A stretch of DNA of 64,000 nt, from the NCBI GenBank assembly GCA_902614905.1, contig CACMMN010000001.1, positions 96,827 to 160,826 of the forward strand, in the 5' to 3' direction. The DNA comes from an uncultured Pelagibacteraceae bacterium (lineage in GTDB: Bacteria; Pseudomonadota; Alphaproteobacteria; Pelagibacterales; Pelagibacteraceae). Made by a program: the position numbers and the translations under genes. Below, piece after piece: positions 3,060 to 15,313 of this stretch; the stretch's first letter is position 1; each line of letters opens with the position of its first letter. The notes under the pieces were generated by a model. It was not told the DNA's origin. It worked only from the letters and a program-made list of their open reading frames with translations, and did no database searches.

Positions 3060-4001
3060 CTATAAAGGTAAGAAACTAGTGTCCACGTTTCCTCTTGGTG
3101 TTCCCATTCCTTTTAAGAATGCATCAAGATTTCCTTTTGTCATAGACTGTTTAGTCTCTTCAGGTGTTAAAAATTTGAAACCACTTAAAGTTTCTTTCAT
3201 ATCAGCAACTTTCATTTCTGAAGCTTTTGACATAGCGTTCATATCGCTTTTGCCATTTCTGTATCTTTCGTTTGCTTCGTGAGTTACTTCAATAAAAGTT
3301 CTTAGCATACCTGGGTTTTCCTTCATAAACTTTGTAGTTACTGAAGTAATATCTATTCCAAGAATACCAGCATCTCTTGCTTCTTGAACTGTAAGTAATC
3401 TAGTACCAACTGCAGTTGCAGCTTTAATTGAATTACCACCAAATAAACATGCCATTACAACATCACCGCTAACTAATGCAGCAGCTCCTTCTTCAGGATC
3501 CATTTGAATGATATCCATTTTTTTTCTGTCAGCTCCAACAACTTTCATACTTTCATCAAAAACGTATTCAGCCATAGTTCCTAGTGGTACAGCAACTTTT
3601 TTACCTTCAAGTTCTGTAGCATTAGCTTTTGTAATACCAGAAGCGTTTGAAGTTACGCAAGTTGTTCCGCCCATTCCATATTCCATAGCAATATCAACAA
3701 GCTTAATCGGCGCTTTTGATTTAACTGCGTTAATGAAAGGTACTAAACCTTGTGAATAAGAAATATCAATATCTCCAGCTAACATTGCATCAGTCATTGC
3801 TCCACCGTTTGTGAAGTTTGTCCACTTAACTGGTACACCTAATGCTTTTGCAAAGTTTTTTTTCATCATGTCCTCTAAATTCGGACTTGGCCATTCTAAG
3901 AAGTAAGCAACTCTAACTTCTTTTGCAGCTGAATTAGCAACTGAAATAGTAAGGTTAAGAGCTAAAATAGTTCCAAGAATAAAACTTAGTATTTTTTTCA
4001 T
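3060..4001 (-). CDS. tauA: Taurine ABC transporter periplasmic binding protein
   Basis: Signal peptide plus NMT1/TauA-like SBP sequence (VRVAYFLEWPSP...GDIDISYSQGLVPFINAV); operon with tauBC. Confidence 0.9.
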   Translation of the reverse strand: MKKILSFILGTILALNLTISVANSAAKEVRVAYFLEWPSPNLEDMMKKNFAKALGVPVKWTNFTNGGAMTDAMLAGDIDISYSQGLVPFINAVKSKAPIKLVDIAMEYGMGGTTCVTSNASGITKANATELEGKKVAVPLGTMAEYVFDESMKVVGADRKKMDIIQMDPEEGAAALVSGDVVMACLFGGNSIKAATAVGTRLLTVQEARDAGILGIDITSVTTKFMKENPGMLRTFIEVTHEANERYRNGKSDMNAMSKASEMKVADMKETLSGFKFLTPEETKQSMTKGNLDAFLKGMGTPRGNVDTSFLPL

Positions 4002-4182
4002 TTATTCCTCTCCTTATTTAAATTTATAAAGAGTATTAAAGTTGAAAAAGAGACCAAAGTAAACGATCTTATTGTATGGTTTGGGGCGACACAATTATCT
4101 ATTCAATTTTAAGTTGTATCAAACTATTATAATTTTATAGTTAAATTAAATGATTTAGTCTAAAGATTAGAAATATATAAAA

Positions 4183-5523
4183 ATGAGTCAAAAACCATCA
4201 ATACCAAATTCTTTAAATGAACATTGGATGCCATTTACATCCAATAAAGACTTTAAAGAAAGACCAAGATTAATTACTGAAGCAAAAGGTGTTTATTTAA
4301 AAAATCACGAGGGTAATACGCAAATTGATGCAAGCTCTGGTCTTTTTTGTAATCCATTAGGTCATGGCAGAATGGAAATTATTGATGCAATTACAAATCA
4401 ATTAAAAACTTTAGATTATGCTCAACCGTTCCAACAAGGTTTTGGTGGATCATTTGAGTTAGCAACAAGAATTTCAAAACACACACCAGGAAATTTAAAT
4501 AGAATTTTTTACACAATTTGCGGATCTACTGCTGTTGAAACAGCAATTAAAATTAGTATTGCTTATCATAAAGCAAGAGGAGAAGGACAAAGATTTAGAT
4601 TTGTTGGAAGAGAAAGAGCTTACCACGGTATGAATATTGGTGCTACCTCAGTGGGTGGAATGATTAATAACGTTAAAGCATACGCAAGTGTTTTAATGCC
4701 AGGAGTTGTTCACATGAGACATACTCATTTAGATGAACATAAATTTATATCTGGTCAACCAGAAACAGGTGCAGAAATTGCAAATGATTTAGAGAGAATA
4801 TGTACAAACTTTGGTGCTGAAAATATTGCAGCATGTATAGTAGAACCAATCGCAGGATCTACTGGAACATTAGTTCCACCAGTTGGATATCTACAAAGAC
4901 TTAGAGAGCTTTGTGACAAACATAATATACTTTTAATCTTTGACGAAGTTATTACAGGATGGGGTAGAACAGGTTCGACTTTTGGCGCTCAAGAGTTTGG
5001 TGTAACTCCTGATATAATGACAATGGCAAAAGCTACAACAAACGGAATTGTTCCATTTGGTGTTGTTGCATGTAAAGAAGAAATTTATGATGCGGTAATG
5101 GATAATTCACCAAAAGGAGTAATAGAACTCTTCCACGGTTATACTTATTCTGGAATTCCAATATCTGTTGCAGCAGCTTTAGCAGTTCAAGATATATTTG
5201 AAAAAGAAGATATTTTTAATAGAGCAAAAGAATTAGCTCCTTATTTCCAAGAAGGTTTATTCTCATTAAAAGATATTGATGTTGTTGAAAACATTAGAGG
5301 ATACGGAATGATGGGTGGTATTGATATTAAGATGGATACAAAACCAGGTAGAGCAGGACTTGCAACATTTAAACATTGTTATGATGCAGGAGTAAATTTC
5401 AAAGCTACTGGAGACTGTTTAATTATTGCACCAATGTTTATTTGCGAGAAAAAACATATTGATGAAATAATCGATAAGCTAAGAACAGGAATTACGAACT
5501 ATAGTAAAAGCAAGAAGAATTAA
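4183..5523 (+). CDS. tpa: Class III (PLP) aminotransferase, probable taurine:pyruvate aminotransferase
   Basis: Class III aminotransferase motifs (LLIFDEVITGWGRTGSTFGAQEFGVTPDIMTMAKATTNG); adjacent to tauABC and ald. Confidence 0.8.
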   Translation: MSQKPSIPNSLNEHWMPFTSNKDFKERPRLITEAKGVYLKNHEGNTQIDASSGLFCNPLGHGRMEIIDAITNQLKTLDYAQPFQQGFGGSFELATRISKHTPGNLNRIFYTICGSTAVETAIKISIAYHKARGEGQRFRFVGRERAYHGMNIGATSVGGMINNVKAYASVLMPGVVHMRHTHLDEHKFISGQPETGAEIANDLERICTNFGAENIAACIVEPIAGSTGTLVPPVGYLQRLRELCDKHNILLIFDEVITGWGRTGSTFGAQEFGVTPDIMTMAKATTNGIVPFGVVACKEEIYDAVMDNSPKGVIELFHGYTYSGIPISVAAALAVQDIFEKEDIFNRAKELAPYFQEGLFSLKDIDVVENIRGYGMMGGIDIKMDTKPGRAGLATFKHCYDAGVNFKATGDCLIIAPMFICEKKHIDEIIDKLRTGITNYSKSKKN

Positions 5524-5531
5524 TTTTCTTT

Positions 5532-6650
5532 ATGAAAATTGGCGTTCCAAAAGAGATAAAGCCTCAAGAAAACAGAATAGGATTAACACCAGAAAGTGTA
5601 AAAACTTTAGTTGGTGAAGGTCATGAAGTATTAGTTGAAAATAATGGTGGCTTTGAAGCTGGCTTTGATAATGATCAGTACACCAAAGCAGGTGCTAAAA
5701 TTGTAAAAACTGCAAGTGATATTTTTAATGATGCAGACATAATTGTAAAAGTAAAAGAGCCTCAAAAAGTTGAGGTGGATATGTTAAAGGAAAATCAAAT
5801 ACTTTATACTTATCTTCATTTAGCGGCTGCAAAAGAGCTTACTGAAGGATTGATTAAATCAAAAAGTGTTAACATCGCTTATGAAACTGTTACAGATGAT
5901 AATGGTAGACTTCCATTGCTTGCGCCTATGAGTGCAGTCGCTGGTCGTATGTCAGTTCAAGCTGGAGCACATTGTTTAGAAAAAAATCAAAAGGGTAGAG
6001 GTATTTTATTAGGTGGAGCACCTGGTGGTGAACCAGCAAATGTATTGATCTTAGGCGGTGGAGTAGTTGGAGAGAACGCTGCAATTATTGCAACAGGTAT
6101 GAGGGCTAAAGTTCATATAGTTGATAAGTCAGAAGAAAGATTAAAACAATTAGTTAAAATGTTTGGTGATAAAATAATTCCAGAGCAAAGTGATAAAGTT
6201 GATTTAAATAAGCTAGTTTCTGAGGCTGATTTATTAGTTGGTGGAGTTTTAATACCTGGGGCAGAAGCTCCAAAATTAGTTACCAAAGATATGTTAAAAC
6301 TAATGAAAAGAGGTTCTGTGATAGTCGATGTTGCAATCGACCAAGGTGGATGTGTTGAAACAAGTAAACCAACTACTCATGGTGACCCAACTTATATAGT
6401 TAATGATGTTGTTCACTATTGTGTTGCCAACATGCCAGGAGGAGTACCAAGAACTTCAACATTTGCATTAAATAAAGCAACTCTTCCTTATTTAGTAAAA
6501 TTAGCAAACAAAGGTTATCAAAAAGCTTTAGGCGAAGATAAGAATTTCTTAGCAGGACTTAATGTACACAAAGGGCATGTGACTTATAAAGCTGTTGCAG
6601 ATGTTTTTGGTCACGAATATGTTAGTGCAGGAGATGCAATCAAAGGTTAA
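5532..6650 (+). CDS. ald: Alanine dehydrogenase
   Basis: MKIGVPKEIKPQENRIGLTPESVKTLV...VLILGGGVVGENAA...VDVAIDQGGCVETSKPTTH; canonical Ald. Confidence 0.95.
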   Translation: MKIGVPKEIKPQENRIGLTPESVKTLVGEGHEVLVENNGGFEAGFDNDQYTKAGAKIVKTASDIFNDADIIVKVKEPQKVEVDMLKENQILYTYLHLAAAKELTEGLIKSKSVNIAYETVTDDNGRLPLLAPMSAVAGRMSVQAGAHCLEKNQKGRGILLGGAPGGEPANVLILGGGVVGENAAIIATGMRAKVHIVDKSEERLKQLVKMFGDKIIPEQSDKVDLNKLVSEADLLVGGVLIPGAEAPKLVTKDMLKLMKRGSVIVDVAIDQGGCVETSKPTTHGDPTYIVNDVVHYCVANMPGGVPRTSTFALNKATLPYLVKLANKGYQKALGEDKNFLAGLNVHKGHVTYKAVADVFGHEYVSAGDAIKG

Positions 6651-7703
6651 ATGCATTCTGCCAAAAATCATAACGAGAAACAACTGTCATTAATTGATGG
6701 CTCAAAATTCTCTTACACCAACAAAAAATACGATTTTGAAAATCGATTTAGTTTTATAGATTTATTTGCTGGTATTGGTGGTTTTAGATTGGGCTTGGAA
6801 GCATTAGATATAAATTGTCTTTTTTCATCTGAATGGGATTTAAATGCTAAAAAAACTTACCAAAAAAATTTTGGTGAATTGCCCCATGGAGATATAAACG
6901 ATGTGAAAATAGAAACAATTCCGAAATTTGATATTCTTACAGCTGGTTTTCCTTGTCAGCCTTTTTCTAAAATTGGAATGAGACAGGGTTTTAAACACAA
7001 AACTCAAGGTAATTTATTTTTTAATATTGCTGAAATATTAAGAAAAAAAAAACCTATATCTTTTATATTAGAAAATGTCAGCGGATTATTAACGCACAAA
7101 TCTAAAGACAAAAAAACGCTAGATATAATGTTTTCAGAGTTAGAGAAAATTGGCTATGAAATAAACTATAAACTTATAGACTCATCAAATTTTGGAGTGC
7201 CACAAGTTAGAAGAAGAATATTTATAGTTGGTTTTTTAAAAAAACACTTTCCAGAACAAACCAATTTTAACTTTCCCAAAGGTAATAAGACAAAAATCGG
7301 TATCGGAAAATTTGTTGAAAATCATAAAAATGGCTATTGCATTTCAAAGAAATTACAAAAAAATTATATTTATAAATCCAAGGATAATTTTCCAGAGGTG
7401 ATTAATAAAAGATCAAATACTCAAGTTAAAACATTAGTAAGCAGCTATCATAAAATTCAAAGAATTACTGGAACATTTGTTAAAGATGGAGAAACTGGAC
7501 TAAGACTTTTAAGTGAGAATGAATGCAAAGCTATAATGGGTTTTCCAAAAAAATTTATTTTTCCAGTTTCAAGAACACAAATGTATAGACAATTAGGAAA
7601 TGCAGTAGTTGTTCCTGTCGTTAAAGAAATAGCTAAAGAAGTAATTAAAGTTTTAGTAAAACTAAAAAAAAGTTATGGCAAACAACTCAAAAAGTCAGCT
7701 TGA
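6651..7703 (+). CDS. DNA (cytosine-5) methyltransferase
   Basis: m5C MTase motifs: I DLFAGIGGFRLGLE, IV GFPCQPFSKIG, VI ENVSGLL, VIII QVRRRIFIVGF, X RQLGNAVVVPV. ATG follows the ald stop codon directly. Confidence 0.95.
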   Translation: MHSAKNHNEKQLSLIDGSKFSYTNKKYDFENRFSFIDLFAGIGGFRLGLEALDINCLFSSEWDLNAKKTYQKNFGELPHGDINDVKIETIPKFDILTAGFPCQPFSKIGMRQGFKHKTQGNLFFNIAEILRKKKPISFILENVSGLLTHKSKDKKTLDIMFSELEKIGYEINYKLIDSSNFGVPQVRRRIFIVGFLKKHFPEQTNFNFPKGNKTKIGIGKFVENHKNGYCISKKLQKNYIYKSKDNFPEVINKRSNTQVKTLVSSYHKIQRITGTFVKDGETGLRLLSENECKAIMGFPKKFIFPVSRTQMYRQLGNAVVVPVVKEIAKEVIKVLVKLKKSYGKQLKKSA

Positions 7704-8244
7704 TTATATAAGAGACTATTTTAAAGCCAATTCGAATAAAAATTTAGAGACAACTAAAATAAAAGGTATTATTGAAAATCAGTATCTATCTGAGACAGGT
7801 AAAAGATTTGAAGATTGTGATAGAGGTATAAGAAGCCTTTATCAAAAAGGTTGGCTCATAAAAGTAAAAAAAGGATGTTATAAATATGATCCTAATTATA
7901 AATCAGAAGATAAAACCTCGCATGACTTTCCAGACAAAATAAAAAAACAAATTTTAAAACGAGATAAATACAAATGTGTTGTTTGTAAACTTGGAAAAAA
8001 AGAAGGTTTAGACTTACAAATTGATCATATTATACCAAGAGATAGAGGTGGAAAGTCTTCACTAGAAAATGGTCAAACTTTATGTTCAAGGTGTAATTTT
8101 TTAAAGAAAAATATGAGCATGAATTCTTTAGGAAAAAAGATTTTCCAAAATTTATTAAAACAATCTATTAAAACAAAAAATAGCGAAATGACCAAAATTG
8201 CTAAAGAGTTCCTTAAATTATTTAAAAAATATAATTTGAATTAA
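7675..8244 (+). CDS. HNH endonuclease, probable restriction partner of the upstream methyltransferase
   Basis: HNH core: RDKYKCVVCKLGKKEGLDLQIDHIIPRDRGGKSSLENGQTLCSRCNFLKK; preceded by a wHTH-like region; 29-nt overlap with the MTase gene. Confidence 0.88.
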   Translation: MANNSKSQLDYIRDYFKANSNKNLETTKIKGIIENQYLSETGKRFEDCDRGIRSLYQKGWLIKVKKGCYKYDPNYKSEDKTSHDFPDKIKKQILKRDKYKCVVCKLGKKEGLDLQIDHIIPRDRGGKSSLENGQTLCSRCNFLKKNMSMNSLGKKIFQNLLKQSIKTKNSEMTKIAKEFLKLFKKYNLN

Positions 8245-8247
8245 TTA

Positions 8248-9951
8248 CTAAAGTTTATCAACTACCTTAGATATATCTTTGCTATCTTTGTCCGCTTTTG
8301 CCCGATCTTCCTTACCACCACTATTCCATTCATCTAAATTATCTTGAATAAATCTTTCTGTTCCAAGTTCATCCCACTCTAATTTAGAGTGATATTTAAT
8401 TTTTACTTGAAGTGGAAATTTTACAGCATTACCACTAATATAACCTTGTCCTTTTCCAAATGCTTTAAGCCATTTAGCATCTTGCTCTGACATTTGTTCC
8501 ATTACACTTCTTACCCAATTTTGATCTTTTGGATTTACCAATTTTAAAACTAAAAAACTATTACATTGTGCTAAAGTAGTTTCGTCTAATCTTCCTGGTC
8601 TCTGAGAGATTAAAATTACACTGGTTCCAAACTTTCTTCCCTCAGTTAACAATCTTCTAATTGTTAAAAGCGATGGTGACTCATTTTTTTCTTCAGATTT
8701 TGAAGGTACAAAATTATGAGCTTCCTCAACTACTGCAGTAAAAGCTTGTATTCTTCCTTTTCTCATACTTGACCTATCTTCAAATAAATCTTCTAAGATT
8801 ATTGATACCATAGTGCTTGATACAACTCTTTCATACCCACCTAAATATAAAACTGTTATTTGATTCTGAGTTACGAATTTATGAGGTTCTAATTCAGAGT
8901 TAGACATATCTTCAAACTGTAAGCCTTTTTTTTGAAACATTCCTCTAAGTCTTGCATTAGTTTGTTCCATACCTCTAAGTTTTTTTATTATGATATCAAT
9001 TTTTCTTAAAATTGGATTTACTGATTTTTTAGATGTTGCATCAAATTTTTCTCTATTTCTATTTATATAATCTCTTAATCTTTCAAGATGCTTCAAAAGA
9101 TCTGTTTCTTCAGCGTGAAATATATCTTTATCTTTTACAAAATTTTCAAATACTCCAACTTGAGCCTCGGTCATTCCTAATCCTAATTTTCTTACAATTT
9201 CTGAAATAGCATCACCTACTTTTTCAGCACTAGCCAACAACTTGGGTGTCAATAATTTGACGGTTAAATCTTTATTTCCAGTTATTTCTTTTAATTTATC
9301 AATATATTTATAAAGACCTAGATAATCACCATGAGTATCGAAAATCATCAATGGATGGCCATATTTTGCTAGACCGGCTAAGATTGTTCTGCAAGCAACT
9401 GTTTTTCCTCCTCCAGTTTGAGCTAATACTGCCAAATGTCTAGAACATAATGCTTCACCTTTTAAATTTATTTTTACTTTTTCCCTATTTATGAGGTGAC
9501 CAATTTCTATAGGTTTATCTTCTTCTTTTTTTCCTGATAATAATTTATTAAGTACATCAGTATCGGGATATAAAACTTTATTGGCAGGCTTTACTGGATA
9601 GTTAAGTGGCATTAATTCTATGTTGTCGAGTGATGCATCCTTTTCTTTAGTACAACCCATAATTTGAACTTCTGACAATAAATATTCAGAATTATTGAAT
9701 CCAAGGGTTTCAAATTGTTGTAAATTTGCATCTGTTAGTGCTGATGCAAATTCATTTGGAAATGTGGGATTAGACCTTTCCATTGTAACAATTCTACCCC
9801 AGACATGTACTTTTCCTTCGGTTGGTGTATTAGATTCTGTGATAACAATATCTCCTACACTTGCTTCCATTTGGCCTAAAACAAAATTATATGTATCAGT
9901 TGAAGTGTTTCCAACCACAGTTCCTATACTTTTCCATTTGTCAGTTGTCAT
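8248..9951 (-). CDS. HerA-like FtsK/HerA-superfamily ATPase with N-terminal HAS-barrel
   Basis: HAS-barrel-like start (GTVVGNTSTDTYNFVLGQ...VGDIVITES), Walker A LAQTGGGKT, Walker B AVVEEAHNFVP, ILISQRPGRLDETTLAQCNSFLVLKL. Confidence 0.92.
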   Translation of the reverse strand: MTTDKWKSIGTVVGNTSTDTYNFVLGQMEASVGDIVITESNTPTEGKVHVWGRIVTMERSNPTFPNEFASALTDANLQQFETLGFNNSEYLLSEVQIMGCTKEKDASLDNIELMPLNYPVKPANKVLYPDTDVLNKLLSGKKEEDKPIEIGHLINREKVKINLKGEALCSRHLAVLAQTGGGKTVACRTILAGLAKYGHPLMIFDTHGDYLGLYKYIDKLKEITGNKDLTVKLLTPKLLASAEKVGDAISEIVRKLGLGMTEAQVGVFENFVKDKDIFHAEETDLLKHLERLRDYINRNREKFDATSKKSVNPILRKIDIIIKKLRGMEQTNARLRGMFQKKGLQFEDMSNSELEPHKFVTQNQITVLYLGGYERVVSSTMVSIILEDLFEDRSSMRKGRIQAFTAVVEEAHNFVPSKSEEKNESPSLLTIRRLLTEGRKFGTSVILISQRPGRLDETTLAQCNSFLVLKLVNPKDQNWVRSVMEQMSEQDAKWLKAFGKGQGYISGNAVKFPLQVKIKYHSKLEWDELGTERFIQDNLDEWNSGGKEDRAKADKDSKDISKVVDKL

Positions 9952-11369
9952 TTAGGTCTCACCCACCAATTTCTACCAGATACAAAACTTTTTAACATCA
10001 TATTTATTTGTTGTTTACTCGCATTAGACTCTAGAGTTTTTCTCAATAAATTGTTTATGTAATTACTTCTCATCGAATTTCTTAACCAAGATGGAACCTT
10101 AGATAGTTTATCAACTGTATCAAGACCTAAAGGGAAACAATACTGAGGAAGAAGTTTAGCCGAGTGGAATGTCAATTTCATGTCCTCATCGTAACTATCT
10201 AAAACGTTTAATGTTTCAATTCTAAAAGGTCTTTTGTCCTCTGAAACTTTTAAAAAAGTAGCAAATGGTTCAGCAAGATGACTATGCATTGAAACATAAG
10301 AATATTTGCCTCGAGGCCATTTGCCCTCAGGTTGCTTGATTATTTGAACAGGTGAAATGTATTCACCAGGATCTAATATTAAATCAAAAATAATGTCGTC
10401 CTTTACAGATCTTCTTTTAAACTTTTTTTCAATCTCATTTCCATCACTTGGGGTTCCAACGGGTTTTATGTCCCAAGTTCTTTCCAATTTTTTCAATTTT
10501 AATTCATATAATCTTCCATAAGATCTTTTAGTTTGATTATGAAAAAGTTCATCAATAACAGCGTTCATCACAGGGCCAGGACTTACTACTCCACCAATTC
10601 TCTCAACAACGCCATAAGTTGGGATTTTTGAAGCTTGGATTTGTTTTAAAATTTCAGAGTACAAAGGTAAAAAATACCTAAACTCAATATCAAGTTCTTT
10701 TTTTTTAAGATCTTTAAAAAATACATTATTTATGTCAGGAAACAATGTTTTGCAAAACTCTTTTTTAAAGGGTGGAATTGGATTTTCCTCATCAGTTGCT
10801 AGATGATACATGGTTGACTCATATGCTATAGGACCATGTAAATAAATTATGTCATTTGTTGATGGTTTATCCCATTTTCCTTTTCCAAGCTGTTGTTTAA
10901 CAACTTCAGATGCTTCCATAATCATTCTTGATCCAGTCAACATTTTATCATACTTCATAACGAATTCTTCTTCTTGTTGTTCGTAATGACTATTATCCCT
11001 ATCAACTAAATTAGAAGTTAATGTTTGACTTTCACTAAAATCACACCAATTATCAGATTGGTCACCAGGTCTATTTCTTAAAACCCCAACTCTAATCCCA
11101 AAAGATGCTGAACCCGGAATTGATAATGATAGTTGTCCCCCATCAATGTTGTAAATTGACTTTTTATTCGCAATTGATTTCCAATATTTATTTGGTTCAA
11201 ACTCTATTTTTTTTATTAAATCTCTATCTTTTAAATATTTTTTAAGCAATCTAGCTAATTCTATAATATTTTTTATATACTCTTTTTGATCAACACCTGT
11301 TGTATTTGCAAGAAACATCATTTCTGTAAAAAAGTTTTTTTTTGTTCTTGCTTCAATTAAATCAGTCAT
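9948..11369 (-). CDS. NurA-like nuclease (HerA partner)
   Basis: NurA-like acidic motif (IYNIDGGQLSLSIPGSASFGIRVGVLR), C-terminal YVSMHSHLAEPFATFLKVSEDKRPFRIETL...CFPLGLDTVDKLSKVPSW; 4-nt overlap with the downstream herA-like gene. Confidence 0.75.
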   Translation of the reverse strand: MTDLIEARTKKNFFTEMMFLANTTGVDQKEYIKNIIELARLLKKYLKDRDLIKKIEFEPNKYWKSIANKKSIYNIDGGQLSLSIPGSASFGIRVGVLRNRPGDQSDNWCDFSESQTLTSNLVDRDNSHYEQQEEEFVMKYDKMLTGSRMIMEASEVVKQQLGKGKWDKPSTNDIIYLHGPIAYESTMYHLATDEENPIPPFKKEFCKTLFPDINNVFFKDLKKKELDIEFRYFLPLYSEILKQIQASKIPTYGVVERIGGVVSPGPVMNAVIDELFHNQTKRSYGRLYELKLKKLERTWDIKPVGTPSDGNEIEKKFKRRSVKDDIIFDLILDPGEYISPVQIIKQPEGKWPRGKYSYVSMHSHLAEPFATFLKVSEDKRPFRIETLNVLDSYDEDMKLTFHSAKLLPQYCFPLGLDTVDKLSKVPSWLRNSMRSNYINNLLRKTLESNASKQQINMMLKSFVSGRNWWVRPK

Positions 11370-12186
11370 TTAATTTTTTCTCCAAATCTATAACAGCAGT
11401 CAAATATCTATTAAGAAGATTGTTTTCAGGCTTACCTTTTTCTTTTCTGCTTTTTTTTCTATCATCCATTTCAATTCTTATTTCTTTAAGAGTACTTTTG
11501 TCTTTTACTTTAAAAGCGACTTTGGCTGCTTGAAGGAGTTCATCAGATGAGCCCTTGATACTGAATGAATGGTTAGCATCAACTATATGTCTTGCGCTAG
11601 TCATAGGTTCAAATAAACCATTTCCTAGGTATTTTGGCAATTTATTTTTCCACCAACATTGAGGGAAAGTAGAACATCCAATAAACCATTGTTGATTTAT
11701 TAGTGAATATCGAGTGGTTGCATCAGATCCACACTTCATGCATGTTTTTAAATGGTCTGGTATTGGTGGAGATTTTGGAATTGCTTGATCATTATGATCT
11801 TTAATTTTTTGTATTTTACTCTTCTCTTCACCTCTTGCACAAGGAGTACATAGTTTTGTTCCTTTTTTAACCTTAAGTCTTGTTAGAAGAATTGGTTTTT
11901 CACATTGTTCACAGGGAATTATTTTTTCAGGATTAAGAATATATTCATGATTGTTATTAATTATAAATAATGGTGATGTATCACATCTTTCACATATTAT
12001 TTCATCATATAGATCAGAAAAAATATTTATATCGTACTCTTTGTTAGTTTCGTATATTTGCCTATTAAATCTACTATCAAAAAAATTTTTTAAATCTTTT
12101 AATTTTAATTCATTGCTATAATTGCATCTTTTATTTCCACAATATATCCTCCAGTCCCAATCATTATTTGAAACTATATTTGCCAT
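11362..12186 (-). CDS. Multi-zinc-finger protein: DksA/TraR-type C4 finger plus topoisomerase-type C4 zinc ribbon
   Basis: CEQCEKPILLTRLKVKKGTKLCTPCARGEE (DksA/TraR-like) and CMKCGSDATTRYSLINQQWFIGCSTFPQCWW (topoisomerase Zn-ribbon-like); further Cys pairs at the N-terminus (CGNKRC, CERC). Overlaps both neighbours. Confidence 0.7.
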   Translation of the reverse strand: MANIVSNNDWDWRIYCGNKRCNYSNELKLKDLKNFFDSRFNRQIYETNKEYDINIFSDLYDEIICERCDTSPLFIINNNHEYILNPEKIIPCEQCEKPILLTRLKVKKGTKLCTPCARGEEKSKIQKIKDHNDQAIPKSPPIPDHLKTCMKCGSDATTRYSLINQQWFIGCSTFPQCWWKNKLPKYLGNGLFEPMTSARHIVDANHSFSIKGSSDELLQAAKVAFKVKDKSTLKEIRIEMDDRKKSRKEKGKPENNLLNRYLTAVIDLEKKLND

Positions 12187-12500
12187 TCCTTTTTAACTAA
12201 CTCTAAAAATTTAATTTCTCTATCTCTAACTATCAAATCTGCAGCAGCTAATCTTTTAGTTAATGTCATGACTTCATTTCGTAAAATTTTATCTTCAACT
12301 GAATTTATGTAAAATAAACATGATGTGTCAAAGTCATCTCTAAATTTATCTTTCATTTCATCTAAAATGATATCAATATCTAAATCAAAATTTTTTTCTT
12401 TGATGTAATCCTGAATAAACTCTCTTTCTTTTTGATGTAATTCATCATCAGAAATAGATAATAGGATTAGAATGTTAATAATATTTTTTTCTTCGTTCAT
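12174..12500 (-). CDS. TerB-like small helical protein
   Basis: TerB-like pattern: LILLSISDDELHQKEREFIQDYIKE...ADLIVRDREIKFLELVKKEW; first gene of the four-gene minus-strand operon. Confidence 0.6.
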   Translation of the reverse strand: MNEEKNIINILILLSISDDELHQKEREFIQDYIKEKNFDLDIDIILDEMKDKFRDDFDTSCLFYINSVEDKILRNEVMTLTKRLAAADLIVRDREIKFLELVKKEWQI

Positions 12501-12570
12501 TTATTTAAAATTAAATTATCAGTTTAATTGTTATTTAACAAATTGACAATAACTGTACCTTCTGTGAAGC

Positions 12571-12599
12571 TTGATATTTGCTTGGAAATTCTTTATTAT
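12571..12599 (+). promoter_or_regulatory. Predicted sigma70 promoter for the riboswitch/55-aa ORF transcript
   Basis: TTGATA (12571-12576), 17-nt spacer, TATTAT (12594-12599); predicted +1 near 12606, the first base of the riboswitch P1. Confidence 0.7.
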
Positions 12600-12605
12600 T
12601 ATGAT

Positions 12606-12663
12606 GTCTCGATTTAGAAAATAACTCTACTTGCTGGGACTTTAAATACAACGCTAAAGGAGG
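12606..12663 (+). promoter_or_regulatory. SAM-II/SAM-V-type S-adenosylmethionine riboswitch (translational, SD sequestering)
   Basis: P1 GUCUC(12606-12610)/GGGAC(12636-12640); L1 begins GAUUUA and ends CUUGCU; 3' UUUAAAUACAACGCUAAAGGAGG. Pseudoknot UUGC(631-634)/GC(U)AA(653-657) plus CUCU(625-628)/GGAG(659-662), covering the Shine-Dalgarno. Matches the recalled SAM-II core (GAUUUA...UUGC...AUAAAU...GCUAAA). Confidence 0.8.
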
Positions 12664-12666
12664 CAA

Positions 12667-12834
12667 ATGAAAATAATAATACAATCAATCAAAAACTATT
12701 TTAAATCAAAAAAGGATAAGGGTTTGGAACCAGTATTCTTTGAGAAAATAGGCGACCAAAAAACATCTAGAGACGAGATGCGTGATAATTTAATAAAAGC
12801 TTTGAAAAAGAATGGCTGGACTATAAAAAAATAA
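12667..12834 (+). CDS. 55-aa small protein under the SAM riboswitch (not in the supplied ORF track)
   Basis: Manual translation: MKIIIQSIKNYFKSKKDKGLEPVFFEKIGDQKTSRDEMRDNLIKALKKNGWTIKK*; strong SD AAAGGAGG just upstream of the ATG. Confidence 0.75.
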   Translation: MKIIIQSIKNYFKSKKDKGLEPVFFEKIGDQKTSRDEMRDNLIKALKKNGWTIKK

Positions 12835-12837
12835 ATA

Positions 12838-12866
12838 TTGGTACAAAAATTGTCCGCTGTTATGAT
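12838..12866 (+). promoter_or_regulatory. Predicted second promoter, placing the TSS at the start codon of the dimethylglycine dehydrogenase gene
   Basis: TTGGTA (12838-12843), 17-nt spacer, TATGAT (12861-12866), ATG at 12872. Confidence 0.5.
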
Positions 12867-12871
12867 GAGTT

Positions 12872-15313
12872 ATGAAAAAGATTCCTAGTTCAACTAAAGT
12901 TGTTGTTATTGGTGGAGGGGTAGTCGGATGCTCTTGTGCTTATCATTTAGCTAAATTTGGTTGGAAAGATGTTATTCTTTTAGAAAGAGATAAACTTACA
13001 TCGGGAACTACTTGGCATGCCGCTGGATTAGTTAGCCAGTTAGGCCCATCTGCAACAATTACAAAAATTAGAAAATATTCTTTAGATCTTTATAAAGAGC
13101 TTGAAAAAAAAGTAGATCACTCAGCAGGACTTAGATTAAACGGCGCAATGTCAATTGCTCAAGAAGAGGGGAGATGGCAAGAATTAAAAAGACAAGCAAC
13201 TACCGCTCAACTTTATAATGTTAATGTTCAAATTTTAAATAAAGATGAAATCAAAGACAAAGTTCCCTTAATTAAAAATGACGATTTGTTGGGTGGAATT
13301 CTTATGCCAGGAGATGGTTCAGGTGATCCATCGGGGATTACTCAATTACTAGCAAAAGCTGCAAGAGCAGAAGGTGCTAAAATTTTTGAAGATTCTCCTG
13401 TTGAAAACATACTAGTTAAAAATAAAAGAATAGAAGGTGTTGTCGTTAATGGTCAAAAAATAGAATGTGAATACATTGTTTTAGCAACCGGTATGTGGTC
13501 AAGACAAATTGGTGAAAAATTAGGTGTGAGTATTCCATTATATCCAGCTGAACACTTTTATGTAATAACTGAACCAATAAAAGAAGTTCCAAAAGATTTA
13601 CCAGTTATAAGAGATTTTGATAGTAGAACTTACATTAAAGAAGATGCAGGTAAATTATTATTGGGAATATTTGAGGGAAAATCCATTCCTGCATTTGATA
13701 AAACTAATAAAGTTCCTGAAGATTTTTCTTTTGGAGAATTTCCAGAAAATTTTGAACATTTTGAGCCTTATTTAACAGCATGTATGAAAAGATTTCCAAT
13801 ATTAGAGAAGGTTGGAATTAGAAAATTTTTTGCAGGTCCAGAATCTTTTACACCAGACACTAATACATTACTTGGTGAAGTTCCTGAGGTTAAAAACTTT
13901 TTTGTTTGTTGTGGATTAAACAGTATTGGAATAGCAAGCGCAGGTGGAGTTGGTAAAGTTACAGCTGAATGGTTAATGAATGGACATATCAATGAAGATA
14001 TATTTAGTTATGATATTAAAAGATTTCAAAAATTTCATTCAGAAATAAATTTTATTAAAGAAAGAGTTACAGAGACGCTTGGAGACTTATATGGAATGCA
14101 TTGGCCGTACAAACAACACAAAACTTCAAGGAATGTTATAACTCTTCCTTATCATGATGATTTAAAAAAACATGGCGCATGTTTTGGTGTGTCCGGTGGT
14201 TATGAAAGACCAATGTGGTTTTCAAAAGATGAAAAGAATAAAGATTATAAATATAGTTACAACTTTCAAAATTGGTATCCAAGTGCAGAATTTGAAACAA
14301 AAAATGCAAGGACTAATGTTGGATTATTTGAACTCTCACCTTTTTCAAAATTTGATCTAAAAGGAGAAAAAGTTCATCAAGAATTACAAATGTTATGCAC
14401 TGCTAATATAAAAGATATACCAGGTTCTATTAAATATACACAAATGCTTAACAAAGATGGAGGAATTGAAGCTGATTTAACTGTTATTTGTATTGATAAA
14501 AATTATTTTAGAGTAGTAAGCTCCGCAGTTAATCGTGAAAGAGATAAATTTCATATTTTAAAACATATCTCAAATGAAATAGATTTTAGGGATGTAACAG
14601 AAGATTATTGCTGCTTAGGTTTATTCGGTCCTAAAAGTAGAGAAATGATATCTTCAATTAGCAATAGTGATTTTTCAAAAGAAAATTTTAAATTTGCGAC
14701 TGCAAAAGAAGTTGAAATATCAGATATAAAAGTATGGGCTCAAAGAATATCTTATGTTGGAGAGCTGGGTTATGAATTATATGTCAAAAAAGAAAATGCA
14801 AAAAAACTTTTTGAAATTTTAGTATCTGAGGGCAAAAAATTTAATTTATCTTTATGTGGCATGCACGCAATGGATATTATGAGAATGGAATCTGGCTATG
14901 TTCATTGGGGTCATGATATATCGCCTGAAGAAAACCAATTTGAGGCCGGACTTAACTTTGCAATTAGCTTTAAAAAAAATACTAATTTTATAGGTAGAGA
15001 AGTTTTAGAGAAAATCAAAGACAAAAACACTGACAAAAAACTTAAAATGATCATTTTAGAAAATTCTAAACCTGGAGAACCACTTCTGCTACATGACGAA
15101 CCTATATTTTTTAAAAATAAGATTGTTGGCAGAACCACATCAGGCAATTTTTCATTTAATTTTAATAAAAACCTAGCTTTTGGTTATATTAACTCCGGGA
15201 TGAGCCATCAGGAGATTGAAAATTCAGAATTTGAGATTGAGGTTGAGAAGAAAAAATTTAAGGCTTCAATTTTAAAAAGACCTTTAAATTCAAAAAAAAT
15301 TTCTGAGATCTAG
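12872..15313 (+). CDS. Dimethylglycine/sarcosine dehydrogenase-like FAD oxidoreductase with C-terminal GcvT-type domain
   Basis: VVVIGGGVVGCSCAYHLAKFGWKDVILLERDKLTSGTTWHAAGLV; C-terminal aminomethyltransferase-like half (GELGYELYVKKENAKKLFEIL...GMHAMDIMRMESGYVHWGHDISPEENQFEAGL). Confidence 0.9.
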   Translation: MKKIPSSTKVVVIGGGVVGCSCAYHLAKFGWKDVILLERDKLTSGTTWHAAGLVSQLGPSATITKIRKYSLDLYKELEKKVDHSAGLRLNGAMSIAQEEGRWQELKRQATTAQLYNVNVQILNKDEIKDKVPLIKNDDLLGGILMPGDGSGDPSGITQLLAKAARAEGAKIFEDSPVENILVKNKRIEGVVVNGQKIECEYIVLATGMWSRQIGEKLGVSIPLYPAEHFYVITEPIKEVPKDLPVIRDFDSRTYIKEDAGKLLLGIFEGKSIPAFDKTNKVPEDFSFGEFPENFEHFEPYLTACMKRFPILEKVGIRKFFAGPESFTPDTNTLLGEVPEVKNFFVCCGLNSIGIASAGGVGKVTAEWLMNGHINEDIFSYDIKRFQKFHSEINFIKERVTETLGDLYGMHWPYKQHKTSRNVITLPYHDDLKKHGACFGVSGGYERPMWFSKDEKNKDYKYSYNFQNWYPSAEFETKNARTNVGLFELSPFSKFDLKGEKVHQELQMLCTANIKDIPGSIKYTQMLNKDGGIEADLTVICIDKNYFRVVSSAVNRERDKFHILKHISNEIDFRDVTEDYCCLGLFGPKSREMISSISNSDFSKENFKFATAKEVEISDIKVWAQRISYVGELGYELYVKKENAKKLFEILVSEGKKFNLSLCGMHAMDIMRMESGYVHWGHDISPEENQFEAGLNFAISFKKNTNFIGREVLEKIKDKNTDKKLKMIILENSKPGEPLLLHDEPIFFKNKIVGRTTSGNFSFNFNKNLAFGYINSGMSHQEIENSEFEIEVEKKKFKASILKRPLNSKKISEI

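What the first reader, a model, noticed from the sequence alone, without database searches (positions are those of the whole stretch)
8248..12500. Four-gene TerB-like / multi-zinc-finger / NurA-like / HerA-like operon: candidate undescribed defence or DNA-processing system
Seen: four minus-strand ORFs overlap in series by 13, 8 and 4 nt, implying co-transcription and translational coupling. The products are a TerB-like helical protein, a protein joining a DksA/TraR-type C4 finger to a topoisomerase-type zinc ribbon, a NurA-like nuclease and a HerA-type ATPase with HAS-barrel and Walker motifs. Established: HerA-NurA is an end-resection motor/nuclease in archaea and some bacteria; HerA-type ATPases paired with nuclease or SIR2 partners are known antiphage modules; TerB domains occur in ter-type stress systems. 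Inference: the TerB and zinc-finger genes are additional sensing/recruitment subunits, and the whole may be a phage-defence or DNA-end-processing machine. I do not know of this exact four-gene architecture being described.
Basis: partly seen in the sequence, partly recalled or inferred. Interest (0 to 1): 0.85.

Follow-up and report, generated by a model that had tools for sequence, protein, structure and literature searches.

The report
Mobile NurA–HerA restriction-linked defence island
A marine SAR11 bacterium carries a recently acquired 6-kb gene island that pairs a DNA-marking and DNA-cutting enzyme with a DNA-pumping, DNA-shredding machine (HerA–NurA); it looks like an antiviral system that destroys unmarked foreign DNA, and a similar partnership recurs in unrelated bacteria.

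Summary
The four overlapping minus-strand genes are real. NurA (9948-11369) and HerA (8248-9951) are confirmed by homologues, fold and motifs. All six island genes tested are under purifying selection. The zinc-finger gene has three C4 sites; the TerB assignment stays unproven. The whole island, 6651 to about 12863, is horizontally gained: 14 of 29 sampled relatives have the flanking genes ald and DMGDH directly adjacent, and none of the 29 carries island genes there. A sister genome's operon starts with a Cas4-like PD-(D/E)XK nuclease; the window keeps only its decayed 3' end. NurA–HerA is patchy (10 of 297 Pelagibacterales). TerB and zinc-finger genes are not conserved partners. In four unrelated lineages NurA–HerA again lies beside a C5 methyltransferase, plus Vsr and/or AIPR. 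Best reading: a new variant of restriction–modification in which HerA–NurA degrades DNA cut or left unmarked by the C5/HNH pair, with zinc-finger and TerB-like proteins as accessories. Against obligate coupling: eight other SAR11 NurA–HerA loci have no adjacent methyltransferase. No experiment shows function.

The parts
6651..7703 (+). C5-cytosine DNA methyltransferase (350 aa); starts directly after the ald stop codon; left end of the island
   Evidence: Pfam DNA_methylase E 9.9e-95; the only C5 methyltransferase found in this genome assembly
7675..8244 (+). HNH endonuclease (189 aa, HNH domain in the C-terminal half), overlapping the methyltransferase by 29 nt; probable restriction enzyme
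   Evidence: Pfam HNH E 6.3e-12; PADLOC REase_II 5.5e-12; full-length homologue near another SAR11 C5 methyltransferase (L113)
8248..9951 (-). herA: HerA-type DNA translocase ATPase (567 aa)
   Evidence: DUF87 E 6.7e-21; PADLOC HerA 3.5e-52; PDB HerA 9x1l E 6.4e-33; motifs
9948..11369 (-). nurA: NurA-family nuclease (473 aa); invariant D76, E152, H178, D420
   Evidence: alignments A1, A5, A6; AF2 model matches NurA structures; homologues hit Pfam NurA
11362..12186 (-). zinc-finger protein with three putative C4 sites (DksA/TraR-type finger plus topoisomerase-type ribbon, 274 aa); proposed DNA-binding/loading accessory
   Evidence: Pfam; cysteine positions; C-terminal similarity to the tail of an about 860-aa SAR11 protein, probably TopA
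12174..12500 (-). small all-helical protein with weak TerB similarity (108 aa); proposed regulatory accessory
   Evidence: Pfam TerB E 0.0073, below cut-off; helical AF2 model pLDDT 88
12501..12630 (-). decayed 3' end of a Cas4-like PD-(D/E)XK nuclease gene that is intact in the sister genome (L031:7954-8757)
   Evidence: nucleotide alignment upstream of the terB-like gene; blastn homology to 12573; Pfam PDDEXK_1 3.1e-7 and PADLOC Cas4 4.2e-8 in the sister
6651..12863 (.). whole inserted island between ald (5532-6650) and DMGDH (12872-15313)
   Evidence: empty sites L063, L065-L068, L072-L075 and others

Best explanation
A horizontally acquired defence island made of two convergent operons. 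Operon 1 is a C5-cytosine methyltransferase plus HNH nuclease: the methyltransferase marks host sites and the HNH enzyme cuts unmarked DNA. Operon 2 is a HerA-NurA translocase-nuclease: HerA should pump DNA from an end into the NurA dimer, which destroys both strands, so that a single restriction event becomes complete destruction of an invading genome; either marked host DNA is not cut, or the mark blocks HerA-NurA. The zinc-finger protein probably helps loading on DNA ends or single-stranded DNA, and the small helical (TerB-like) protein probably regulates; in a sister genome a Cas4-like nuclease is a fifth subunit. Shown here: gene content, families, NurA fold, mobility, purifying selection, recurrent C5-methyltransferase adjacency. 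Inferred: that the two operons act together, the order of steps and the roles of the accessory proteins.
For: Island gained at a site that is empty in many relatives and patchy (10 of 297 Pelagibacterales). The C5 methyltransferase and HNH genes end 3 nt from herA, and this is the assembly's only C5 methyltransferase. Independent NurA-HerA loci again have a C5 methyltransferase: L061 methyltransferase-NurA-HerA-Vsr in one operon; L052 NurA-HerA-AIPR-methyltransferase; L060 methyltransferase 139 bp from HerA, plus AIPR; L051 methyltransferase, AspBHI-like enzyme, Vsr, NurA-HerA, AIPR. G888 has 3 and G668 4 C5 methyltransferases in 4.6 Mb, one of them beside NurA-HerA in each. A related HNH and C5 methyltransferase in another SAR11 genome flank a helicase-type motor (L113). 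All genes under purifying selection. Archaeal HerA-NurA degrades both strands of dsDNA in an ATP-dependent way, and its authors suggest an antiviral role (PMC12977600).
Against: Eight other SAR11 NurA-HerA loci have no C5 methyltransferase nearby, and seven of those genomes show none anywhere in the assembly. C5 methyltransferases occur over cut-off in 28 of 126 SAR11 genomes, far more often than NurA-HerA. The window methyltransferase is only 28% identical to that of L051, so the pairing arose separately or partners were exchanged. Defence islands cluster unrelated systems, which weakens adjacency as evidence. No experiment.
Confidence: 0.52

Rival explanations
1. Two independent systems side by side: an ordinary Type II C5/HNH restriction-modification pair, and a stand-alone NurA-HerA antiphage nuclease (with zinc-finger, TerB-like and formerly Cas4-like subunits) that senses DNA ends or phage replication structures without any methyl mark. 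Co-residence only reflects a defence hotspot.
For: Eight SAR11 NurA-HerA loci without a C5 methyltransferase; related methyltransferase plus HNH without NurA-HerA in L113; different synonymous divergence of the modules (methyltransferase/HNH dS 0.17-0.19, zf/terB 0.12-0.18, herA/nurA 0.38-0.53).
Against: C5-methyltransferase adjacency in four further lineages, two of them within tightly packed operons.
Confidence: 0.3
2. A DNA-transfer (donation) module of a mobile element, as in Thermus ICETh1, where a Type IIG restriction enzyme, NurA, the HerA-like TdtA and an N4/N6 methylase form one operon needed for transjugation.
For: Same combination of restriction enzyme, methylase, NurA and HerA in ICETh1 (PMC5365140); the island is mobile.
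Against: No integrase, relaxase or conjugation gene among the window island genes; no Type IIG enzyme like Tth111II.
Confidence: 0.07
3. A housekeeping or stress DNA-end-resection machine for recombination repair, as proposed for archaeal and Deinococcus HerA-NurA.
For: NurA and HerA family membership.
Against: No relative found in 287 of 297 Pelagibacterales and absent at this site from sampled relatives; adjoining restriction-modification pair.
Confidence: 0.08

Closest known systems
HerA-NurA of archaea and Deinococcus (end-resection / dsDNA-degrading complex)
   Same: Same two families, nurA directly beside herA, NurA fold, Walker motifs, Asp in the DG motif (D76).
   Different: Patchy and mobile here; next to a C5 restriction-modification pair; invariant LHGP (H178) and VDK (D420) residues in this subfamily; extra zinc-finger and helical proteins.
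TdpAB (phosphorothioate-sensing HerA-like/NurA-like antiphage pair)
   Same: HerA-like motor with NurA-fold nuclease; the TdpAB structure chain 8wfd_G matches the window NurA model (Z 11.0).
   Different: No phosphorothioation genes in the island; modification here would be 5-methylcytosine; TdpA is only a weak sequence match to the window HerA (E 2.3e-4).
ICETh1 tdtA operon of Thermus (Type IIG enzyme, NurA, HerA-like TdtA, N4/N6 methylase)
   Same: NurA and HerA with restriction and methylation genes on a mobile element (PMC5365140).
   Different: Demonstrated role there is DNA donation; different methylase chemistry and nuclease; carries an integrase.
MORC/paraMORC and CglI-type C5 restriction-modification operons (C5 methylase, Vsr, AIPR, SFII helicase, nuclease)
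   Same: C5 methylase, Vsr, AIPR and HNH partners as in L051, L052, L060, L061 and the window (PMC2292703).
   Different: Motor and nuclease are HerA-NurA instead of an SFII helicase plus nuclease; HerA and NurA are not mentioned in that paper.
Sir2-HerA and HerA-DUF4297 antiphage systems
   Same: HerA motor coupled to an effector; HerA matched in PDB and PADLOC.
   Different: Effector is NurA, not Sir2 or DUF4297.

Membership tests
HerA translocase | HerA central ATPase domain with Walker A/B | tested here: met
   DUF87 6.7e-21; motifs at 180 and 407
HerA translocase | N-terminal HAS-barrel | tested here: inconclusive
   Pfam HAS-barrel 15 bits, cut-off 25.2; homologue L060 20.4 bits
NurA nuclease | NurA RNase H-like fold | tested here: met
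   Top 8 Foldseek hits are NurA; Z 12.6 to 2ygk; the model is of modest confidence (pLDDT 59)
NurA nuclease | Asp in the DG motif (catalytic in characterised NurA) | tested here: met
   D76-G77-G78 invariant in all rows
NurA nuclease | Remaining metal-site residues of canonical NurA | tested here: inconclusive
   E152 is invariant, but the subfamily has invariant H178 and D420; their correspondence to canonical residues rests on memory, no residue-level structural alignment was available
HerA-NurA module | nurA adjacent to herA in one operon | tested here: met
   4-nt overlap; adjacency kept in all other loci, with one intervening ORF in L026
Type II restriction-modification | DNA methyltransferase plus linked endonuclease | tested here: met
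   C5 methyltransferase and HNH, overlapping
Type II restriction-modification | Methylation and cleavage at the same site | not testable with these tools
   no biochemical data
   Full-length zinc-finger homologue only in G000 and G128 of 297; other NurA-HerA loci have other partners
TerB (PF05099) | Match above the family cut-off or TerB fold | tested here: inconclusive
   17 vs 24.4 bits; no significant PDB match of the model
TdpAB / Dnd phosphorothioate systems | Linked phosphorothioation genes | tested here: not met
   None among the six island proteins; genes elsewhere in the genome were not searched
DISARM | DrmA, DrmB, DrmC beside the methyltransferase | tested here: not met
   None among the six island proteins
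MORC/CglI-type C5 restriction-modification | SFII helicase or MORC/paraMORC ATPase in the operon | tested here: not met
   Window motor is HerA; a helicase version occurs in L113

The most novel reading that the evidence does not exclude
HerA-NurA is the ATP-dependent restriction arm of an undescribed class of C5-methylation-gated restriction-modification systems (minimal form: methyltransferase-NurA-HerA-Vsr as in L061), in which the 5-methylcytosine mark itself stops or excludes the HerA motor, as a phosphorothioate mark is thought to do for TdpAB; the SAR11 island is a marine variant with extra DNA-binding, regulatory and Cas4-like subunits.
Probability: 0.28. Interest if true: 0.82.

Novelty: new variant of a known kind. 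Interest (0 to 1): 0.58.

Why it matters
Whether HerA–NurA is a repair or an antiviral machine is openly disputed (PMC12977600). Bacterial HerA–NurA loci that sit in operons with C5 methyltransferases, Vsr and AIPR give a direct, testable link to restriction–modification, and show defence cargo in SAR11, a lineage known for very streamlined genomes.

Tried and rejected
TerB by structure: no usable match. Conservation of the TerB and zinc-finger genes with NurA–HerA in other SAR11 loci: forced alignments show unrelated proteins. NurA in plasmids and phages by tblastn: none. NurA by sequence against PDB: no match or only spurious ones. An intact fifth gene in the window: rejected, only a decayed 3' end remains. 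Presence/absence association of C5 methyltransferase with NurA–HerA within SAR11: not supported. Residue-level mapping of NurA catalytic residues onto solved NurA: not obtained.
Full report
OBSERVATION. The four minus-strand ORFs exist at the stated coordinates with overlaps of 4, 8 and 13 nt. Against the sister genome (L031, the same locus as L022, AG-916-O13) dN/dS is 0.04 (herA), 0.14 (nurA), 0.15 (zinc finger), 0.06 (terB-like), 0.09 (methyltransferase) and 0.12 (HNH), so all are selected genes.

IDENTITIES. HerA is secure: DUF87 E 6.7e-21, PADLOC HerA 3.5e-52, PDB HerA E 6.4e-33, Walker A, Walker B and SQRP motifs. The NurA protein has no direct Pfam match, but its homologues do (L051 41.2 bits; L060 25.4 bits; L023 19.6 bits, just under the cut-off of 21). 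Its AF2 model, of modest confidence (pLDDT 59), retrieves eight NurA chains first, with Z 12.6 to 2ygk, 11.0 to the TdpAB chain 8wfd_G and 9.9 to Deinococcus NurA. D76, E152, H178 and D420 are invariant in this subfamily. From memory, canonical NurA has Asp where H178 lies and His where D420 lies; this exchange was not tested. The zinc-finger protein has twelve cysteines that could form three C4 sites; its C-terminal half resembles the zinc-ribbon tail of an about 860-aa SAR11 protein, by size and ribbon probably TopA. The TerB claim is not established, although TerB domains do occur in the antiphage systems Shango and Bunzi (PMC10952713).

On the plus strand a C5-cytosine methyltransferase (6651-7703) and an HNH nuclease (7675-8244) overlap by 29 nt and end 3 nt from the end of herA. 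This is the only C5 methyltransferase found in the genome assembly (the assembly is about 82% complete).

MOBILITY. In 14 of 29 sampled relatives ald is followed directly by the DMGDH gene, and none of the 29 has island genes there. In L063 the gap is about 5 nt. The window insert is therefore 6651 to about 12863. The sister has about 12 kb at the same site, and L064 has about 0.5 kb of other DNA. Synonymous divergence is 0.6-1.1 in flanking genes but 0.12-0.19 in methyltransferase, HNH, zinc-finger and terB-like genes, and 0.38-0.53 in herA and nurA, which suggests recent exchange by recombination.

A FIFTH GENE. In the sister a 267-aa PD-(D/E)XK, Cas4-like nuclease lies 10 nt upstream of the terB-like gene. 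In the window a homologous but decayed 3' end remains. The four-gene operon is a shortened form.

DISTRIBUTION. NurA relatives occur in 10 of 297 Pelagibacterales, in no class member but the own genome in a sample of 289, in two further genomes of a phylum-wide sample of 398, and in no further member of the class of G888. Full-length zinc-finger homologues occur only in G000 and G128. Eight SAR11 loci (L023-L030) carry NurA–HerA with other partners; most have an OLD/AAA_15 ATPase, and one carries a sigma-70 region 2-like protein (L028).

RECURRENT PARTNERS OUTSIDE SAR11. The HerA profile search of viral contigs found L051 and L052, and the NurA profile search found L060 and L061. All four have NurA–HerA near a C5 methyltransferase: L061 methyltransferase–NurA–HerA–Vsr; L052 NurA–HerA–AIPR–methyltransferase; L060 methyltransferase 139 bp from HerA with AIPR beyond NurA; L051 methyltransferase, AspBHI-like methyl-directed enzyme, Vsr, NurA–HerA, AIPR. 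G888 and G668 hold 3 and 4 C5 methyltransferases in 4.6 Mb; by simple uniform placement (my arithmetic) adjacency within about 5 kb has a probability of about 1% in each, and about 1% in the window genome. Defence-island clustering makes this an overstatement of the surprise.

COUNTER-EVIDENCE. Within SAR11 the association does not hold by presence and absence: 28 of 126 genomes have a C5 methyltransferase above the cut-off, and of the eight other NurA–HerA genomes only one does, on another contig. In L113 relatives of the window's methyltransferase and HNH flank a helicase-type protein and no NurA–HerA. The latter also fits a C5/HNH core that works with interchangeable ATP-driven motors.

MECHANISM. 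Established: T. kodakarensis HerA–NurA cleaves both strands of dsDNA, needs HerA ATPase for dsDNA, loses activity with NurA D49A, and its authors suggest antiviral defence (PMC12977600). Inferred: restriction by the HNH enzyme, or absence of the mark, gives HerA–NurA access; the motor then destroys the molecule. The zinc-finger protein may load the complex on ends or single-stranded DNA, and the helical protein may regulate it. TdpAB is the closest precedent for a modification-gated HerA/NurA pair (my knowledge of TdpAB; only its structures were seen here).

KNOWN OR NEW. ICETh1 of Thermus joins restriction enzyme, NurA, HerA-like TdtA and a methylase, and is needed for DNA donation (PMC5365140). 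MORC/paraMORC operons join C5 methylases, Vsr, AIPR and helicases, without HerA or NurA (PMC2292703). HerA/FtsK capture systems are described without NurA (PMC10853773, PMC12839542). I found no paper in the held library that describes C5 methyltransferase–NurA–HerA systems; subscription papers and preprints were not searched. Verdict: a new variant of a known kind, with moderate to good interest.

Noticed in passing
L023-L030 (SAR11), e.g. L023:4090-12588: A second SAR11 NurA-HerA locus type, near RmuC and exonuclease genes: most copies have an OLD/AAA_15 ATPase, an HTH or sigma-like protein and a conserved small basic cysteine-containing protein (about 110 aa), with no C5 methyltransferase. 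It looks like a separate candidate defence system.
   Followed up: partly
window 9948-11369, residues H178 and D420: Invariant His in LHGP and Asp in VDK; from memory these look like an exchange of canonical NurA Asp and His positions. Not tested structurally.
   Followed up: partly
window 12501-12630: Decayed 3' end of a Cas4-like PD-(D/E)XK nuclease gene that is intact in L031:7954-8757.
   Followed up: yes
L113:3527-9039: Another SAR11 island with C5 methyltransferase, helicase-type protein and a full-length relative of the window HNH; the adjacent 322-aa ORF at 3527-4495 looks like a tyrosine recombinase but was not confirmed.
   Followed up: partly
window 12667-12834 (+): Small 55-codon ORF in the gap between the terB-like gene and DMGDH, preceded by a GGAGG-like site.
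   Followed up: no
L031:2741-7718: Further cargo in the sister island: PrsW-like protease, Sel1 repeats, DUF805 protein and a phage CII-like regulator.
   Followed up: no
L060:13917-15623: A protein joining a methyltransferase domain to an HNH_4 domain beside AIPR, C5 methyltransferase and NurA-HerA.
   Followed up: no
window 9948-11369 versus L031: nurA is more diverged than its operon neighbours (87% protein identity against 97% for herA and the zinc-finger gene), with local minima near residues 280-400.
   Followed up: partly
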